DNA of 64,000 nt from Chitinophagales bacterium (lineage in GTDB: Bacteria; Bacteroidota; Bacteroidia; Chitinophagales; CAIOSU01). The stretch covers positions 921,363 to 985,362 of the forward strand of contig BPHB01000002.1 of assembly GCA_026003335.1 (NCBI GenBank), in the 5' to 3' direction. The notes under the pieces are model-generated. The model was not told the origin of the DNA, ran no database searches, and saw only the letters and a program-made list of their open reading frames with translations. Both the position numbers and the translations under genes were made by a program. This document shows positions 49,516 to 57,348 of the stretch, piece by piece; the stretch's first letter is position 1; each line of letters starts with the position of its first letter.

Positions 49516-50172
49516 TCAAAAACCCTTTAACCGGTAATATATGATTTTGATATACTCGTTATTAACAAATATTAAGCCTTCTTCTTTCTCCCACCAGCGG
49601 TTTTCATCATACACCGAACTGGGTGCGCCCCGGATTATCAGATGAATACCCGTATTCTGAAACACCTTCCGAAACGTATTGCGCATGCGCCTGGTATGAA
49701 ATAATGAAGATACTATAATCGCTTTTTTTACATTGTGCTCCCGGCAATAGTGAAGGATATGCTCTGCCTCTTCGCGGGTGCTTGTACCCAAGCACAGCAG
49801 TTCGGCATCTTCAGCCGCCACACCGCTTGCAAGAAGATGCATCCACGTAAGCTCACTTTCCGCATAATCAATGCCGGCTATTTTAAACAAAGTGGGTACG
49901 TTTTCGCCCGTACAGATTATCTTCTCTGCATAGCCGCTTTTATAAAGTCTGATTGCTTCATTACCACGATCCCACGGATCTCCGGACAATATAAACAGGG
50001 CAGGAGCATGCTCCAGAGGGTCTTCACAAATCAGGTAATTGCCCGCGGCACGGAGTATAGGATACCGTATTGCCCAAAAAAGAATAGCTGTAAGTAGTAC
50101 CCCCGCGCCTGTCCATAAAATGGCGTACAGAAGCTTCTTCATCAACCAGAAGACCTTTTTGCGTTGACCCAT
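49516..50172 (-). CDS. DUF218 (SanA/YdcF/ElyC-like) membrane protein
   Basis: A 218-residue protein with one N-terminal membrane helix (LLYAILWTGAGVLLTAILFWAI) and a DUF218 domain: PALFILSGDPWDRGNEAIRLY, GYAEKIICTGENVP, LGTSTREEAEHIL and IIVSSLFHTRRMRNTF. Members such as SanA, YdcF and ElyC affect envelope integrity and undecaprenyl-phosphate handling in E. coli, but no catalytic reaction is established. The ATG at 50140-50142 (ten codons in) is a good alternative start. It is 46 bases upstream of dut and divergent from the GT2 gene. Confidence 0.82.
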   Translation of the reverse strand: MGQRKKVFWLMKKLLYAILWTGAGVLLTAILFWAIRYPILRAAGNYLICEDPLEHAPALFILSGDPWDRGNEAIRLYKSGYAEKIICTGENVPTLFKIAGIDYAESELTWMHLLASGVAAEDAELLCLGTSTREEAEHILHYCREHNVKKAIIVSSLFHTRRMRNTFRKVFQNTGIHLIIRGAPSSVYDENRWWEKEEGLIFVNNEYIKIIYYRLKGF

Positions 50173-50228: not shown

Positions 50229-50954
50229 ATGTCTTCGCACTCCCTGGATATTATCCTGCCCTGCTATAATCCAAGCCCTCGCTGGGTGCAGCAGGTGGCA
50301 GATGCCTATACAAAAGTATGCAATGCCCTGCCGGATACAAAAGTGCAGCTGATTATTGTCAATGACGGCTCGGATAAAGACCTTGCCCCTGACTTTGATT
50401 TGCTGAGGAAAATGGTTCCGCATCTGATTATAGAAAGCTACCCGGTCAACCGGGGTAAAGGATTTGCCTTGCGCAGAGGCGTTGCAATGAGTACCGGTGA
50501 GCTGATCATTTATACGGATATTGATTTCCCTTATAAGGAAGAAGGTCTTATTCATCTTTACCATGCACTGGCAGACGGAAAATTTGACGTAGCCTTGGCT
50601 GTGCGCAATGCGCATTACTACCGGCAAGTGCCTTTTATGCGGAAAATCATGTCCAGAGTGTTGAAAGCCATTATCCGGCAAACGCTGCGGTTACCTACCA
50701 GTGATACGCAGGCCGGATTAAAGGGATTTAATCTGCGTGGGAAAGATGTATTTCTGCAAACCACAATTCATCGCTATCTTTTTGACCTTGAGTTTATTTG
50801 TCTCGTTACGGAATCAAAGCTGAATGTAGTATGCGTTCCGGTGGAGCTGAAAAGCCAGGTGCATTTTACGCGCATGAATATGAAAATTGCCTTACGGGAA
50901 TCGCTGAACCTGATTAAGATCATTTTCAGGCGAGGACGATTTTTCCCAGCATGA
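50229..50954 (+). CDS. Family 2 glycosyltransferase (polyprenyl-phosphate sugar synthase type)
   Basis: A 241-residue GT2 enzyme: LDIILPCYNPSPRW start, IIVNDGSDKD nucleotide-binding motif, NRGKGFALRRG, IYTDIDFPY as the DxD-like metal site, and SDTQAGLKGFN, typical of dolichyl/undecaprenyl-phosphate mannosyl- or glucosyltransferases (DPM1/GtrB-like). It lacks C-terminal membrane helices. The product would be a lipid-linked monosaccharide used as donor by GT-C enzymes; the next gene overlaps it by 4 bases (ATGA) and encodes such a candidate. Donor sugar unknown. Confidence 0.86.
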   Translation: MSSHSLDIILPCYNPSPRWVQQVADAYTKVCNALPDTKVQLIIVNDGSDKDLAPDFDLLRKMVPHLIIESYPVNRGKGFALRRGVAMSTGELIIYTDIDFPYKEEGLIHLYHALADGKFDVALAVRNAHYYRQVPFMRKIMSRVLKAIIRQTLRLPTSDTQAGLKGFNLRGKDVFLQTTIHRYLFDLEFICLVTESKLNVVCVPVELKSQVHFTRMNMKIALRESLNLIKIIFRRGRFFPA

Positions 50955-52606
50955 ACCTGACAACCACCATTAATCTGAAAAAGCCCGCAGGAAATATTTT
51001 GCTGCTGCTTACCTGCTGGGCATTCTCGCTGCTCATATATGCGGGACACTCCCATGCCCGCTTCCTGGATTATCTGGACCGATGGGCCTTTTTTTATGCA
51101 CAATATGGCTTCAAAGGTATTTTGGATGAATACCAGAATGTTTCCCTGCTCTATGTTTATCATTTTTTTCAATATCTGCTCTTTAGGCTTGCCGGCTTCC
51201 ATGGCGTGGTGTGGAATGCGGTTTTTACTCTGCTGCACGCACTGAATGCGTTGATGGCTGCACGGTTGTTTTCCTTTTATGGACAAAAGCTTTACCCTGG
51301 AAATGCGCTTGTTGGGGCATGGCTGGTAGCTGCACTGGTTGTCATAAGTCCTTATCAGACCGAAGTGCTTGCCTGGGGTCCCACCATCCACTATCTGCTC
51401 ACTGGATTTCTTGTGCTCTTAGCTGTGGAGATGACACTACGCTTTGCAGTCACCGGCAAAATGCGGTTTGCCGCACTGAGTGCCTACGCTTTTTTTATCG
51501 GTTTGTTTACGCATGAAATGATGCTCATGCTGCCTCTATTATTGTTTATCGTTCTGACGGTCAGCCCTAGAATACTACAGATGCCTGAACGCTGGTGGCT
51601 GCTTTATACACGCCTGGGCAGCCTGCTTATTCTACCAGTAATCATATTTTTTGTATCAAATAAATACCTCCTGGGGAAGTGGATTGGGCATTATGGTGCA
51701 TCAACACATTTGCACTTTTCTGTTTCAGGCATGGGCAGTTCTGCTTTGAAATATGTTGCAAAATATCTTACGCTTGCCTCCTGCTGGCCTGAGGAGCTGA
51801 AAAATCCGTTTTATCAATTCCTTGATACTACAAGGGCCGGATATTTGTTTGCCGCATTTTGCATGATTCTCTTTGCAATTATTATGCTCCGTTTATTGTG
51901 GCCAAAAGTGCAGCTGATGCTGCTTTTCTTTCTGCTGTTCCTTAGCTCACTGCTTCCGGTGCTGAACTTATACTTTCCTTACTGGATACCTATCATGGGT
52001 GACAGGCTGGGCTATGTGGCATCCCTGTTTTTTTCACCGTTCCTGGTTACGCTTTTATTTCTCCTTCCCCGATTTGTGCGTTGGATTCTTGTAGTTCTTT
52101 TCTACGCTGCTGCAGGCTGTTGTCTGCACACCCATGTGTATGCGTGGAAAAAAGCCGGAGCCATAGCTACAGCGCTGGAGCAAAATTTTCCGTACACGGA
52201 AGCTTCTGCAATATTCATTCTTGCTTTGCCTGAAAATTATAAAGGGGCTCCCATGTATCGTCTTACGGAAGAAAAAACCCAACCGCTGGCTGAAAATATT
52301 AAAAAACGCACAGGCAAAGATTTAAACGGAGTGGTTTATGAGGTTGTAAAATACAATATGATGGCCCCCGATGATTCCGTATCCGTGGAGATAGTGAATG
52401 ATTCAACCCTAAAGGTAACTCTGAGCGCCTGGGGGCGTTGGTTCTGGCGCTACAATGCAGGCGCATCAGATTATGATACGGACGAATATTCTGTAGATGT
52501 AGATGACCTGGCTCATTCGTATACGATCCGCTTTAAAAATAAAAAGCCAGATGCTCTTTATATTTACCAAACCGGAAACACCTGGCGCAAGGTAACCGGA
52601 TTCTGA
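50951..52606 (+). CDS. Multi-spanning membrane protein, GT-C-like, with C-terminal soluble domain (copy 1)
   Basis: A 551-residue protein I do not recognise as a named family. Residues 15-400 contain about 11 hydrophobic helices; the first external loop holds acidic residues (FLDYLDRW), and a later loop has VISPYQTEVLAWGPTIHYL, similar in style to GT-C glycosyltransferases. Residues about 415-551 form a soluble beta-rich domain (EVVKYNMMAPDDSV, LSAWGRWFWRYNAG, YIYQTGNTWRKV). The following gene is a full-length paralogue. Start overlaps the GT2 stop, so a lipid-linked sugar donor from GT2 may be its substrate. That is inference from context. Confidence 0.72.
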   Translation: MNLTTTINLKKPAGNILLLLTCWAFSLLIYAGHSHARFLDYLDRWAFFYAQYGFKGILDEYQNVSLLYVYHFFQYLLFRLAGFHGVVWNAVFTLLHALNALMAARLFSFYGQKLYPGNALVGAWLVAALVVISPYQTEVLAWGPTIHYLLTGFLVLLAVEMTLRFAVTGKMRFAALSAYAFFIGLFTHEMMLMLPLLLFIVLTVSPRILQMPERWWLLYTRLGSLLILPVIIFFVSNKYLLGKWIGHYGASTHLHFSVSGMGSSALKYVAKYLTLASCWPEELKNPFYQFLDTTRAGYLFAAFCMILFAIIMLRLLWPKVQLMLLFFLLFLSSLLPVLNLYFPYWIPIMGDRLGYVASLFFSPFLVTLLFLLPRFVRWILVVLFYAAAGCCLHTHVYAWKKAGAIATALEQNFPYTEASAIFILALPENYKGAPMYRLTEEKTQPLAENIKKRTGKDLNGVVYEVVKYNMMAPDDSVSVEIVNDSTLKVTLSAWGRWFWRYNAGASDYDTDEYSVDVDDLAHSYTIRFKNKKPDALYIYQTGNTWRKVTGF

Positions 52607-52716
52607 TAATTCCTCTATGAAGCTGCCCATTACTGTACTGCACCTTTATCCTTTCAGGCCTGGTAGGCCAGAAATATGCTGGTTCACCTTTGCATAGTAT
52701 CTGCCCTGTGAGGTTG

Positions 52717-54330
52717 ATGGCAAACATCTTTCTGTTAATTCTATGCTGGGGCATTACCGTTCTTTTCTATGCAGATACCGGTGGTGGCGGACTGGTTACA
52801 GATGCTCTTGGTTGGTTCATGCAATATGAAAAGATGGGGTGGCAGGGGCTGGTTTACTCGTTTGACGACAAAGCGTTGCACCATGTGTATCATCTTGTTT
52901 TTTTTTCGCTTTACAAGCTTATGGCATTTCATGCCAGCGGCTGGATGCTGGTGATGACATTTCTCCATGCCCTCAATGGGCTTGCGTTGTATCATGTATG
53001 TGCTGTTCTGTTTCGTCCGTTGTTGCCGGCTGGTTTTCGTTTAGCCGCCCTTGCCGGAAGTATCCTGTTTCTGGTATCACCCTACCAGACTGAAGCCGTG
53101 GTATGGAATGCGTGCATACATTATCTGATAGCTACTGCTCTGTTACTTACCTCATTGTATGCGGCACTTCAATTTTTAAGAAGGCCTCTCAAGAGGTATC
53201 TCCTTATTTTTTATCTATGTTTTCTGCTGAGCCTGTTTACTCTTGAAATTGCGTTCGCCCTGCCGTTGATGCTTGTGTTCTTAATTCTGCTGAAGCCTTT
53301 CCCTCAACTAAACGCCCTAAGCCGGAGCAAAGCCTGTATGCTGCTCATTGTGCCTCTGCTGATGTTCCTGGCCGGTTATTTTATACTTAACCAGATTTTC
53401 CTTGGTGCATGGGTCGGACACTACGGAGCAGATACGCATCTGAATTTTTCTCCTCAACTGCTGAGTTCAAACTTTGGAAAGTATCTGGCTAAATATCTCT
53501 TACTGATACAGTTTTTCCCATATGATATCCGGCAGCACATCTATACCATTCTTGAAAAGTACTGGTGGTTGCTGTTTTTAATATCGTTGGGAATATTCAT
53601 GATGATATTTTTCAAACCTTCCTGCCCTGCTTCCGGGAAAGCACTCACTGCCTGGCTGGTATTGTTCGCCATTGGTCTCAGCCCTGTTCTTAACCTGTAT
53701 TTCACAGACGTTGTTCTTATAGAGGGTGATCGGCTAGGGTATTTTGCCTCTGCCTTTTTTTACCCGTTCATCGTCCTGTGTGTATGGACATTTCTGCCCA
53801 GGATAAAATATGTTTTGCTGCTGCTGGTGGTTGGTGTCTCCGCGTGGTGTTTGAACCGAAACACTTCCAGCTGGGCGCATGGGGCAAAAATTACTTCTTC
53901 ACTGACGGAGTCATTCCGTTGGTATAACGCTCCACATATTTATATACTCAACCTTCCGGATAATTTTAATGGGGCATACATGTTTCGTTCCTTTGACGGG
54001 ACCAGTGCCCTCGCTGAGCATTTACTGCTGAAAAAGAGAAAAGACCTGCGCGGCAAGATAACTGAGATAGTTAATTATAATATGGTGACCCCTTTTGATT
54101 CGGTTAGGGCTGAGGCGCTTTCTGAAAAGGCACTCAGAGTGGAATTGGCTCAGTGGGGCAACTGGTTCTGGAGAAATGGTATTGGAGCTACCGCTTACAG
54201 GGGTAATGGTTTTGAGTTTATCCCTGACGAGTGGCTGCATGCTTATACACTTGAGTTTGACAGTGTGCCGGATAGTGACATCCGGATTATCTACCAATGC
54301 GGGGCTGCATGGCGCGAGTTCAGGCGTTGA
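52717..54330 (+). CDS. Multi-spanning membrane protein, GT-C-like, with C-terminal soluble domain (copy 2)
   Basis: A 537-residue paralogue of the preceding protein, taken from the ATG at 52717 (a TTG at 52690 would add nine residues). Matching landmarks include FLHALNGLALYHV, LVSPYQTEAVVWNACIHYL, GAWVGHYGADTHLNFSPQ, LSPVLNLYF-GDRLGYFAS and, in the C-terminal domain, IVNYNMVTPFDSV, LAQWGNWFWRNGIGA and YQCGAAWREF. The tandem copies share full-length order but are clearly diverged, so the duplication is old. The 3' end stops 5 bases from convergent recO. Confidence 0.72.
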   Translation: MANIFLLILCWGITVLFYADTGGGGLVTDALGWFMQYEKMGWQGLVYSFDDKALHHVYHLVFFSLYKLMAFHASGWMLVMTFLHALNGLALYHVCAVLFRPLLPAGFRLAALAGSILFLVSPYQTEAVVWNACIHYLIATALLLTSLYAALQFLRRPLKRYLLIFYLCFLLSLFTLEIAFALPLMLVFLILLKPFPQLNALSRSKACMLLIVPLLMFLAGYFILNQIFLGAWVGHYGADTHLNFSPQLLSSNFGKYLAKYLLLIQFFPYDIRQHIYTILEKYWWLLFLISLGIFMMIFFKPSCPASGKALTAWLVLFAIGLSPVLNLYFTDVVLIEGDRLGYFASAFFYPFIVLCVWTFLPRIKYVLLLLVVGVSAWCLNRNTSSWAHGAKITSSLTESFRWYNAPHIYILNLPDNFNGAYMFRSFDGTSALAEHLLLKKRKDLRGKITEIVNYNMVTPFDSVRAEALSEKALRVELAQWGNWFWRNGIGATAYRGNGFEFIPDEWLHAYTLEFDSVPDSDIRIIYQCGAAWREFRR

Positions 54331-54335
54331 ACAAA

Positions 54336-55043
54336 TTATCTTGCCGCTAGCACTTCACTGAGCACACGATGCGACCGTACAGTGCCAAAGCCGGGGATAT
54401 GGAGCCGGTAAAACTCCAGCAGCTTGTCCAGCAGCAGGGAGCGCTCGGTTGAAGATAGTGCTACCTTTTCTGCTTGCATAATCTCTCTCAACTTTGCACA
54501 TAGCTCAGGAGACATCACATGCCGATGCTCAGGTAACTTCATTGTAAAACTTCCTTCCCTCAAATCAAAAAAGTACTCTCCCTGCGGCATACTGCCGGGA
54601 TAAAAACCCAGATACTGCGTCAGCTCCATCATAAAGCGGAAGTGAAAGCACATATCTGCAGGAGCGGTGTCCAGGCTTATCAACCGGCTCTCAAGGAAAT
54701 TATACAACAGGGCATTAGGCTCTTCTTCCTTGATAGCTGCATGCATAACCTCCAGCAGGAATAGCATAATGGCGCCCTTGCGCATATCGCTGCGCAAGCT
54801 GCCGTAAACATGGTGCAGACTGCATTCCTTTACAAAAGCCAGACCTCTGCTTTCACGATGATACACTTCCATACTCAGAATATTACCCGGCTGGAATAGT
54901 ACCGCCCTTTTACTTTTCCCTGCCCGCGCTCCCTTCACGATATAAGACTGCAGACCAAAGACGCTGGTATATGTTTTTGTAATCAGACTAGTCTCTGAAT
55001 ATTTAATGGCAGAGAGAACGATGCCCCGTGTTTTGGCGAGCAC
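54336..55043 (-). CDS. recO: DNA repair protein RecO
   Basis: A 235-residue RecO, which with RecF/RecR displaces SSB and loads RecA. The N-terminal OB fold (TRGIVLSAIKYSETSLITKTYTS) and the helical C-terminal part (YLGFYPG) match the family. The usual zinc-finger cysteines of some RecO proteins are not obvious, as in many Bacteroidota versions. It starts 1 base after the porZ stop, so the two genes are coupled; porZ-recO adjacency is common in the phylum. Confidence 0.9.
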   Translation of the reverse strand: MLAKTRGIVLSAIKYSETSLITKTYTSVFGLQSYIVKGARAGKSKRAVLFQPGNILSMEVYHRESRGLAFVKECSLHHVYGSLRSDMRKGAIMLFLLEVMHAAIKEEEPNALLYNFLESRLISLDTAPADMCFHFRFMMELTQYLGFYPGSMPQGEYFFDLREGSFTMKLPEHRHVMSPELCAKLREIMQAEKVALSSTERSLLLDKLLEFYRLHIPGFGTVRSHRVLSEVLAAR

Positions 55044-55044
55044 T

Positions 55045-57348
55045 TCAGTTGATAATTAAAAATTTGGTTACGTAGCTGGACGAGCCGTCTTCCCCTGAGC
55101 TGAAAATAAGATACACTCCTGTTTTGGCTTTCTCACCATGATAGTTTCTTCCATTCCACACAGCCTGACCGCCCAGGGCTTTTGTTTCATAAAAAAGACG
55201 GCCGGCCGTATCGGTTATTTTTACGGTAGCATTATTGGCCAGTCCTTTAATTGCAATGGGCCCCTCATAATCAGCCCGCACCGGATTAGGGAAAACCATC
55301 ACCTGCGTATGTTGCGCCCCTCCTTCAGTGGCCTCTCCTCTGATGGAGACAATGCCGCGGCTGGTGCCAATGAATACTTCGCCCGTAGAGTGGTCAATAG
55401 CTATATCGGTTATCACATTGCTCAGCAAAGGGCTGTTGTCAACCGTGTAGTAGGCAATCTGGCGGGTTCCGTCAGGTGAGAGGAGAAATACCCCGTTGGA
55501 GGTTCCGACCCATTTTCTGTTGCCCCCGTCCACGGCAATGGCCGAAACTCTTTCGGTCTCCAGCAAATATCCTGCTACTCCATTCTGCGTCACTATTATC
55601 TGCTGTGCCTCACACCCCGACTGGGAAAATACCGCACCCGGACAATAAAAAACAGCTATACCCTGAGCTGTGCCCACCCAAATTTCCCCATCCAGATCCT
55701 TTGCCAGTGCATACACTTCATTGCTGGGCAGATTGCCATTACCCTGACCGGTACCATATATCTTATACTGATCATCCGTTGTGGAAGTCAGGTCTTGTCC
55801 GTGATTAAACACCAGCAGGCTTTGATTGGAAACACGGGGAATCACAATCCATTTCTGGTCATAATCATCTACCAAGAGACGCTCAAGCTGATTACCTTTC
55901 ACTCCCGGTGCCGTGAAAGAAAACCAGGTGCCGTCATCCTGCAAGGCAATAATTGGACGGTTGGTTCCGTAGCTGGTCATCCACAAGGTTCCCCTGTCAT
56001 CAAAAGTCAACCCGCTTATAACCGTTCGTGCCTCAAAGCCTGGTAGTCCCTCCAGAATAGAATTATATTGGTTGAACACAGTAAAGTTGCCGTCCCGATA
56101 TTCCAGCAGGCCGCCCCACCAGGATCCGAAATAAACCCGATCCCTCTCCGGGTGAACGGCTACTTTCCAGAAGTTGTAAATGGTATCAAAGGCTGCGTGT
56201 GTGTACACATTATAGTTTCTCCATTCGTTAGAAACAAACTGAAATACTCCGTCAATGTTGTAGCCGTCAAAGCTGTAGCTTTGATCCACACTGCCGGGAG
56301 CAACCCAGAGTTGTCCCCTCTGCACATCCATGCTTTGGACATTTACGGAGCCCGGGCCTGTGGGATAAATGGCATCGGCATTATCTTCTGACAGTTTGAT
56401 GAGCCCTTCCAGAAAGTCAGCTATCCACCATGTTCCGTTGGAATCCATAACGGCATCTGTCGGATATCGTATTCTGAAGGGATTCACCAGGTAGTTACAA
56501 CAGAGGAAGGAAGAGTCTATGAGACCTATTCTACCCTGATAGGTTAAAGGTTCGGCTGTTTCACAAAGAACAAGGTGTTTGGCTGTGGACAATACATTTT
56601 CCAACCTCCAGGCAGGCTGGGCATAAAAGAAAGACCAGATGTTGCCGTCATACACATACAGAGTGTCCTGCACATTGGCAAACAGTCTTCCCTGAAAGCG
56701 GACTATATTCTTTGCCAAGCGGGCAGGCAATCCGACAATCGGCTGCCATTCGGAGAAGTTCAGCAGGTTGGGTGAATTCCGGGAAGCCACTTTTATCCCT
56801 TCTGCAGTGGCAGCATAAAAGGAGCTGGTGTCTGCTGCAAAGTCAAACACCTCCAGGTTTGCTCCCTGGTTGCCAATGCGATAGGTGTCTTTAATTTCTT
56901 TTCTGACCATGTCCAGCACCACAATGCCAAAACTGCACGACAGATAGGCAAGGTCTCCCATAAAGGTTACGCGGTTAATTTGCTTTTTGCCTACAATCTG
57001 TTTACGCTTGATATCGGAAATGTTAAAAATCGTGTTCCCCTCCAGGATATCCAGATTCGTGTTATCATACACTATCAAAAGCATGTTGTTATGCGGATTA
57101 ACTTTCACCAGCGTTACCCCCACATCACTCAGGCCGGAAGCTTTGTCAAAGGACTGCAACTGTCCGGTTTCTTTATCATAGGAAAAGAAAAAAACATCGG
57201 TAGCCACATACACTTTATTACCGGCATCAGTTACGCTGGTAGCATTCCGATAAGGGACATGCGTGCGCCATTGCCCTATGCCCAGAGGCACCTGTGCCAC
57301 CAGCACTGCCGGAGTAAACAATAATAGGAGGCGAACTAAATTCATCAT
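55045..57348 (-). CDS. porZ: Type IX secretion system protein PorZ
   Basis: A 767-residue surface protein: signal peptide (LLLLFTPAVLVAQ), two seven-bladed beta-propellers made of two-component-regulator-like repeats (for example YALAKDLDGEIWVGTAQGIAVF, AIAVDGGNRKWVGTSNGVFLL), and a C-terminal T9SS-type beta-sandwich domain (VFPNPVRADYEGPIAIKGL to VYLIFSSGEDGSS). The start GIGQWRTHVPYRNATSVTDAGNKVYVATD is distinctive for PorZ. In Porphyromonas gingivalis PorZ belongs to the cell-surface attachment complex and delivers anionic LPS to the sortase PorU. Length equals the family norm. Confidence 0.9.
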   Translation of the reverse strand: MMNLVRLLLLFTPAVLVAQVPLGIGQWRTHVPYRNATSVTDAGNKVYVATDVFFFSYDKETGQLQSFDKASGLSDVGVTLVKVNPHNNMLLIVYDNTNLDILEGNTIFNISDIKRKQIVGKKQINRVTFMGDLAYLSCSFGIVVLDMVRKEIKDTYRIGNQGANLEVFDFAADTSSFYAATAEGIKVASRNSPNLLNFSEWQPIVGLPARLAKNIVRFQGRLFANVQDTLYVYDGNIWSFFYAQPAWRLENVLSTAKHLVLCETAEPLTYQGRIGLIDSSFLCCNYLVNPFRIRYPTDAVMDSNGTWWIADFLEGLIKLSEDNADAIYPTGPGSVNVQSMDVQRGQLWVAPGSVDQSYSFDGYNIDGVFQFVSNEWRNYNVYTHAAFDTIYNFWKVAVHPERDRVYFGSWWGGLLEYRDGNFTVFNQYNSILEGLPGFEARTVISGLTFDDRGTLWMTSYGTNRPIIALQDDGTWFSFTAPGVKGNQLERLLVDDYDQKWIVIPRVSNQSLLVFNHGQDLTSTTDDQYKIYGTGQGNGNLPSNEVYALAKDLDGEIWVGTAQGIAVFYCPGAVFSQSGCEAQQIIVTQNGVAGYLLETERVSAIAVDGGNRKWVGTSNGVFLLSPDGTRQIAYYTVDNSPLLSNVITDIAIDHSTGEVFIGTSRGIVSIRGEATEGGAQHTQVMVFPNPVRADYEGPIAIKGLANNATVKITDTAGRLFYETKALGGQAVWNGRNYHGEKAKTGVYLIFSSGEDGSSSYVTKFLIIN

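What the first reader, a model, noticed from the sequence alone, without database searches (positions are those of the whole stretch)
50229..54330. GT2 plus two tandem GT-C-like membrane proteins: a possible undescribed glycan-transfer module
A polyprenyl-phosphate-sugar-type GT2 overlaps by ATGA with a membrane protein of unknown family, followed by a diverged full-length paralogue. Both have about 11 helices, a YQTExxxW loop and a C-terminal soluble domain with NYNM-type and W-x-x-WFWR motifs. The pairing of a lipid-linked sugar maker with multi-spanning proteins bearing a periplasmic domain is the logic of GtrB/GtrC or ArnT-like systems. The C-terminal domain is not one I know.
Basis: inference. 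Interest (0 to 1): 0.62.

Follow-up and report, generated by a model that had tools for sequence, protein, structure and literature searches.

The report
New GT-C sugar-transferase family in Bacteroidota
Next to a gene that probably loads a sugar onto a membrane lipid sit two members of an unnamed family of membrane proteins that look like outward-facing sugar transferases, distantly related to the animal TMTC enzymes but with a tail domain of unmatched shape, so they probably decorate the surface of these bacteria.

Summary
A soluble GT2 (50229-50954) overlaps by ATGA a polytopic protein, GTC1 (50951-52606), followed by GTC2 (52717-54330), 34% identical to it. Neither has a Pfam or NCBIfam match. 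An AlphaFold2 model of GTC1 (pLDDT 88.9) resembles GT-C glycosyltransferases (best Z 20.7). Profile comparison ties the family to bacterial TMTC-like proteins (probability 99.4; four unrelated membrane families at most 0.9). The 143-residue C-terminal domain models at pLDDT 94.8 but has no clear PDB match.

So the GT-C reading is supported; a fixed three-gene module is not. The family occurs in 22 of 99 relatives; the GT2 is adjacent in 3 of these and in one further named record. Elsewhere the same GT2 family sits beside other multi-spanning proteins, once in a GtrA/PMT_2-like/GT2 row. In 7 of the 22 the GTC gene lies near porZ, in a region where some relatives carry a YfhO-like GT-C instead.

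Likely function: transfer of a lipid-linked sugar onto a surface glycan. GTC1 lacks the loop-1 Asp at its usual column, so GTC2 is the likelier active enzyme. Sugar, acceptor and flippase are unknown.

The parts
50229..50954 (+). GT2, probable polyprenyl-phosphate sugar synthase (P0001)
   Evidence: PF00535 E 4e-14; best NCBIfam PpgS E 3.5e-12, 46 bits, far under its cut-off of 370; PDB: ArnC-type transferase and dolichol-phosphate-mannose synthase, E about 2e-6 to 6e-6; conserved NDGS, TDxDFP, DTQxGxK, FDxE
50951..52606 (+). GTC1, GT-C-fold membrane protein (P0002); loop-1 Asp displaced
   Evidence: model pLDDT 88.9; fold; Y at the Asp column, the only such row of 22
52717..54330 (+). GTC2, GT-C-fold membrane protein (P0003); alternative start TTG 52690
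   Evidence: 34% identity to GTC1; family profile E 4.2e-199; loop-1 D, E, R and Y positions kept
51062..51085 (+). GTC1 loop 1, residues 38-45 (FLDYLDRW): D40 and D43, none at column 41
52801..52803 (+). GTC2 loop-1 Asp (D38 counted from TTG 52690, D29 from ATG 52717)
52172..52606 (+). GTC1 C-terminal domain
   Evidence: sequence alignment A2; beta-rich in the full model
53899..54330 (+). GTC2 C-terminal domain
   Evidence: model pLDDT 94.8, pTM 0.89; no PDB match at E 0.001, best Z 3.4
54336..55043 (-). recO, neighbour
   Evidence: PF11967, PF02565
55045..57348 (-). porZ (type IX secretion), neighbour
   Evidence: PF21544 E 6.5e-38; same place found
49516..50172 (-). DUF218 gene, neighbour
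   Evidence: PF02698 E 7e-11; homologue also beside GTC in L044 and L046

Best explanation
A two-step extracytoplasmic glycosyl-transfer system. The cytosolic GT2 puts a sugar from a nucleotide sugar onto polyprenyl phosphate; an unidentified transporter flips it; GTC2, a GT-C enzyme of an unnamed TMTC-like family, transfers the sugar in the periplasm to an acceptor, most likely a surface polysaccharide or LPS chain, with the C-terminal beta domain perhaps holding the acceptor. GTC1 has the same fold but its loop-1 aspartate is displaced by one residue, so it is either a partner of GTC2 or an enzyme of altered activity. Shown here by computation: fold, homology, conserved residues, gene order. 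Inferred: donor, flipping, acceptor, coupling to the GT2 and the roles of the two paralogues.
For: GT-C fold; TMTC-like homology with controls and in the own genome; catalytic-type residues kept in the family at positions described for TMTC (PMC7801869, abstract and passages); GT2 homologues beside multi-spanning proteins in 14 of 23 loci and in one GtrA/PMT_2-like/GT2 row; ATGA overlap here, adjacent GT2 and GTC in G001, G023 and L174; glycan genes beside GTC in some relatives: NeuB (L052), GT4 (L178, L186) and MBOAT (L181), YfhO (L034, L158).
Against: The GT2 is not adjacent in 19 of 22 genomes and unmatched in 11; no GtrA flippase match in this genome; many relatives show no glycan gene next to GTC; the TMTC Lys before the Glu is absent; Foldseek TM-scores are modest, near 0.4; no activity is known.
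Confidence: 0.55

Rival explanations
1. The GTC proteins glycosylate proteins rather than polysaccharide: a TMTC-like protein O-glycosyltransferase that puts one sugar on periplasmic or secreted proteins, perhaps type IX cargo.
For: Nearest profile relatives are TMTC-like; human TMTCs act in protein O-mannosylation (PMC7801869, abstract); a 2025 review calls the Bacteroidota OTase and ligase undiscovered (PMC12871550, passages); porZ is near in 7 of 22 genomes.
Against: Found in 22 of 99 relatives and, full length, in 2 of 395 genomes over the phylum, too patchy for the general system; DUF1736 and TPR absent; polysaccharide-type neighbours in some loci.
Confidence: 0.2
2. The GTC proteins are GT-C enzymes but independent of the GT2 beside them, which serves another enzyme or another pathway.
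For: GT2 and GTC are unlinked in 8 and GT2 unmatched in 11 of 22 genomes; association p 0.067.
Against: ATGA overlap here and adjacency in G001, G023 and L174; the GT2 family habitually neighbours multi-spanning proteins.
Confidence: 0.2
3. Not a glycosyltransferase: GTC1 or both are non-catalytic GT-C-fold proteins or transporters.
For: GTC1 lacks the loop-1 Asp at its column; GPI-transamidase chains, which I recall to be non-catalytic PIG-U, are among the structural matches.
Against: No MFS, CNT, TatC or RND similarity, probabilities at most 0.9; GTC2 and nearly all relatives keep the acidic, Glu and Arg positions.
Confidence: 0.05

Closest known systems
TMTC O-mannosyltransferases (PF08409) and bacterial TMTC-like TPR proteins
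   Same: Homologous membrane part: probability 99.4, E 1.3e-21 over 380 columns; Asp in loop 1, Glu of the KE motif, Arg and Tyr of ERxxY in aligned places; C-terminal soluble part
   Different: No PF08409 and no TPR match in 22 members; beta-rich C-terminal domain instead; Lys of KE absent, Glu of ERxxY replaced
CsbB/YfhO-type LTA glycosylation (PF09586)
   Same: GT2 and a GT-C protein in one operon (PMC5836110, passages); YfhO-like genes occupy the same porZ/recO region in relatives
   Different: No YfhO match in 22 members
GtrA/GtrB/Gtr and GT136 three-component systems
   Same: Lipid-linked sugar maker plus GT-C enzyme (PMC11127046, passages); a homologous GT2 lies in a GtrA/PMT_2-like/GT2 row in L072
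   Different: No flippase gene beside the three genes and no PF04138 match in the genome
ArnT/PMT_2 (PF13231) enzymes
   Same: Fold: ArnT 5f15 Z 18.5, rmsd 5.1, 380 aligned; own-genome PMT_2 proteins at probability 94.3
   Different: PMT_2 matches 1 of 22 members, E 4.3e-4

Membership tests
GT-C superfamily | GT-C membrane fold | tested here: met
   Model of GTC1; Foldseek E 1.2e-4 to PglB, probability 1.00; the 50 structural rows shown are GT-C or GT-C-fold chains, some identified by recall of the chain
GT-C superfamily | Acidic residue in the first outer loop | tested here: met
   Asp in 21 of 22 rows of A1, GTC2 included and Asp 34, Glu 1, gap 1 in 36 further proteins; GTC1 is the exception, with D40 and D43 beside the column
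GT-C superfamily | Uses a polyprenyl-linked sugar donor | not testable with these tools
   needs an enzyme assay
TMTC (PF08409) | Homologous 11-helix GT-C/PMT core | tested here: met
   hhalign 99.4 against nine TMTC-like proteins, controls at most 0.9
TMTC (PF08409) | DUF1736 segment | tested here: not met
   no PF08409 match in 22 members at E 1
TMTC (PF08409) | C-terminal TPR repeats | tested here: not met
   no TPR match in 22 members; beta-rich domain
YfhO (PF09586) | Match to the Pfam model | tested here: not met
   none in 22 members at E 1
PMT_2 (PF13231) | Match to the Pfam model over its cut-off | tested here: not met
   GTC1 and GTC2 no match at E 1; 1 of 22 members at E 4.3e-4
Gtr-type three-component system | GtrA-type flippase | tested here: not met
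   PF04138 0 matches in the own genome; the same search rings in 7 of 14 control genomes
Gtr-type three-component system | GT2 that charges polyprenyl phosphate | tested here: inconclusive
   sequence resemblance only

The most novel reading that the evidence does not exclude
The porZ/recO region is a swap site for GT-C enzymes (this family, YfhO-like, or both) that tailor the glycolipid to which PorZ and the type IX sortase attach secreted proteins, so that lineages change the sugar on their protein anchor by changing one gene. In this genome the site carries its own donor maker and a pair of GTC paralogues, one with a displaced catalytic Asp.
Probability: 0.12. Interest if true: 0.75.

Novelty: new variant of a known kind. 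Interest (0 to 1): 0.47.

Why it matters
It gives a fold and a testable activity to a family that has no Pfam or NCBIfam name and no relative among PDB sequences, found in records named Chitinophagales, Saprospiraceae and related Bacteroidota. It adds a C-terminal domain without a clear PDB match to the GT-C superfamily. It shows two GT-C families in one gene region beside porZ, whose product in Porphyromonas gingivalis binds the anchoring A-LPS (PMC8545088, abstract and passages), which makes a link between surface-glycan tailoring and type IX secretion testable. It also bears on a phylum whose protein O-glycosylation OTase and ligase a 2025 review calls undiscovered (PMC12871550, passages).

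Tried and rejected
Transporter: rejected on the controls; none of the 12 places of the family profile in the own genome coincides with the 5 MFS places. General protein OTase of the phylum: disfavoured by the patchy distribution. Conserved three-gene module: rejected on linkage and co-occurrence. Recent tandem duplication: undecided; the tree puts GTC1 with L033 and L039 (81/95) and leaves GTC2 unresolved, but the two as one clade is not rejected, p-AU 0.373.

Led nowhere: genome-contig scan with GTC1 alone (none); family profile against PDB sequences (one chance match at E 2.7); hhalign with the 'KNYY' neighbours of the GT2 (probability 11.4, inconclusive); paper searches for PorZ with YfhO, PorZ with RecO, Saprospiraceae with glycosyltransferase and GT-C, and at least four of five TMTC/bacterial-homologue terms, 0 papers each, in a library of open-licence PMC papers only.

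Rows left out before counts: L045 and L051 are not in A1 (no start placed by my script; near-copy of L052), but are in the tree. TMTC set 9 of 20 loci, PMT_2 set 4 of 8, phylum hits 15 of 28 loci, the only ones that gave an ORF by my rule. GT2 neighbourhoods: 23 of 32 (20 fetched plus own, G001, G023). The 14 of 23 includes a sodium symporter (L068); without it 13 of 23, p 2.8e-6. My crude helix count also missed L038 (the GTC itself) and L059. The phylum scan scored only 3 candidates per genome. The 20 porZ loci were picked by me from those listed, and three of them (G001, G013, G073) are genomes with a GTC gene elsewhere. Of 39 family ORFs in the named records, 3 under 400 residues were left out of the residue count.
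Full report
What is there. The window lies in a 3.9-Mb genome (G000:C2:921363-985362); named records with the same gene family are Chitinophagales, Saprospiraceae and other Bacteroidota, with one labelled only 'bacterium'. Three genes run on the plus strand: GT2 50229-50954, GTC1 50951-52606 (ATGA overlap) and GTC2 from ATG 52717, or TTG 52690, to 54330. To the left on the minus strand lie a DUF218 gene, a gene I read as dut, and a sugar nucleotidyltransferase; to the right on the minus strand recO and porZ (PF21544, E 6.5e-38), then a plus-strand gene I read as ileS (dut and ileS by eye).

Family identity. GTC1 and GTC2 have no Pfam or NCBIfam match at E 1. tblastn with GTC1 found the family in 22 of 99 genomes, own included. 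Alignment A1 holds 22 proteins, two own and 20 from 19 other genomes. One of the 22 matches PMT_2 at E 4.3e-4; no TMTC, TPR or YfhO match was listed. Over the phylum, 37 of 395 genomes had a match at E 1e-10, but only G000 and G023 had full-length ones (E below 1e-180); the next, E 2.5e-39 and weaker, cover part of the profile, and those I could read include TPR-bearing TMTC-like proteins. A scan of named genomes gave 35 loci, two of them with short matches only (L188, L190), and three on contigs of the same length as those of G066, G023 and G055.

Fold. The AlphaFold2 model of GTC1 on A1 has pLDDT 88.9 and pTM 0.90. Foldseek's first matches are PglB and eukaryotic OST, five at E below 0.001, probability 1.00, with TM-scores near 0.4 and large rmsd. 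The 50 rows of the structural second look are GT-C enzymes or GT-C-fold chains: OST, AglB, PglB, ArnT (Z 18.5), PMT, AftD, ALG3/6/9/12 and others; for some multi-protein entries I name the chain from recall. The tool warns that helical bundles can reach Z 13 or 14 by chance; 47 of the 50 rows are at 13 or more, the best is 20.7, and they come from one superfamily.

Homology. hhalign of A1 with nine bacterial TMTC-like proteins gives probability 99.4, E 1.3e-21 over 380 columns; SPYQTE aligns with HPLHTE, LFTHE with LLSKE, GDRLGY with AERFLY. Controls: MFS 0.9, CNT 0.1, TatC 0.2, RND 0.1; own-genome PMT_2 proteins 94.3; the KNYY neighbours of the GT2 11.4. In the own genome the profile has 12 places; of the 10 beyond GTC1 and GTC2, four overlap PMT_2 places and three overlap or share a frame with TMTC places, and none coincides with the five MFS places.

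Catalytic residues. Published TMTC motifs are DD in loop 1, KE(T/Q)xxT in loop 3 and ERxxY (PMC7801869, abstract and passages). The family has Asp at the loop-1 column in 21 of 22 rows and E189, R352 and Y355 in 22 of 22, but no conserved Lys before the Glu, and D or N in place of the Glu of ERxxY. In 36 further proteins, three of them copies of A1 rows, the loop-1 column is D in 34, E in one and a gap in one; E189 and R352 are kept in all 36 and Y355 in 34. GTC1 is the one row of A1 without Asp there; it has D40 and D43. GTC2 has the full set, so it is the better candidate for an active enzyme.

C-terminal domain. The 143-residue domain of GTC2 folds confidently by itself (pLDDT 94.8, pTM 0.89) and is mostly beta. 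Foldseek's best PDB match has E 0.12, the second look's best Z is 3.4 over 68 residues, and only residues 64-143 are spanned by many rows. I call it unmatched, not new: no library of predicted cellular proteins was at hand.

The GT2. P0001 matches PF00535 and, among PDB sequences, ArnC-type transferases and dolichol-phosphate-mannose synthase. A homologue at E 1e-20 exists in 32 of 99 genomes. Of 23 GT2 loci examined, 14 have a protein of at least 400 residues and 8 predicted helices directly beside it, against 17 of 154 control ORFs, p 4.2e-7. Nine of the 20 fetched GT2 loci hold a polytopic protein with the motif G-x-D-x-x-KN(Y/F); the three I scanned (L054, L057, L066) have no Pfam match at E 0.01. 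In L072 the row is GtrA (PF04138, E 3.4e-15), a PMT_2-like protein (25.8 bits, just under the cut-off of 26.1), GT2. In some loci, such as L063, L064, L067, L071 and L073, no such protein is adjacent. The GT2 looks like a donor maker with changing partners.

Linkage of GT2 and GTC. Of 22 GTC genomes, 3 have the GT2 adjacent (own; G001, divergent; G023, same direction), 8 have it elsewhere and 11 have no match at E 1e-20. Over 98 other genomes: 10 both, 11 GTC only, 21 GT2 only, 56 neither, p 0.067. One more adjacent, same-direction pair is L174, a Saprospiraceae record.

Neighbourhood of GTC. In 7 of 22 genomes (own, L033, L034, L036, L037, L044, L046) the gene is near porZ, and in all of these but L037 near recO (porZ places confirmed). 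Among named records L158 has YfhO, GTC and porZ in a row, and L159 has recO beside GTC. Of 20 porZ loci without GTC beside porZ, six have a YfhO-like gene between recO and porZ (L140-L142) or on the far side of recO (L137-L139), three have porZ and recO side by side (L143, L153, L154), and in the other eleven recO is not among the nearest genes shown. The YfhO label rests on Pfam for L034 and L158 and on BLAST similarity to L034's protein for L137-L142. Within one genus, G002 and G006 have GTC where G003 and G004 have YfhO between recO and DUF218, and G005 has YfhO beside recO up to a contig end. PorZ is over the cut-off in 84 of 99 genomes, so its presence is not tied to GTC. In three genomes of family f19 GTC is near genes I read as porKLMN and uvrC (by eye). 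In L052 GTC starts one base after NeuB ends. L178 and L186 have a GT4 gene just upstream, L181 an MBOAT gene followed by several GTC ORFs. Many other loci show no glycan gene beside GTC.

Mechanism. The best reading is extracytoplasmic transfer of a single sugar from polyprenyl phosphate, as proposed for CsbB/YfhO (PMC5836110, passages) and for the Gtr and GT136 systems (PMC11127046, passages). The flippase is missing from the picture: this genome has no GtrA match. Sugar and acceptor are open.

Membership and novelty. It is GT-C by fold and homology. It is not filed under TMTC, YfhO, PMT_2 or Gtr because defining features tested here were not met. It works like a known kind with a new subfamily and an unmatched domain: a new variant of a known kind.

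Noticed in passing
L137-L142, L034, L158; window 54336-57348: The porZ/recO region carries GTC in some genomes, a YfhO-like GT-C in others, both in two, and nothing in three.
   Followed up: partly
L054:4762-7095, L057:4819-7137, L066:4610-6976: A polytopic family of about 770 residues with a G-x-D-x-x-KN(Y/F) motif, no Pfam match, is a frequent neighbour of the GT2 family.
   Followed up: partly
L181:5395-12964, L183:2084-11365: Several GTC ORFs in tandem near an MBOAT acyltransferase gene (Pfam for L181, by eye for L183); one L181 copy appears split.
   Followed up: no
L161, L162, L163, L168, L191: A Peptidase_M43-like gene lies next to GTC in five named records (Pfam for L161 and L162, clustering for the rest).
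   Followed up: no
L053:8306-11612: A second tandem pair of GTC genes, from distant branches of the tree, behind a NeuB-like gene.
   Followed up: no
L166, L171, L176, L177: Two genes that by eye look BatA- and BatD-like lie next to GTC in four named records.
   Followed up: no
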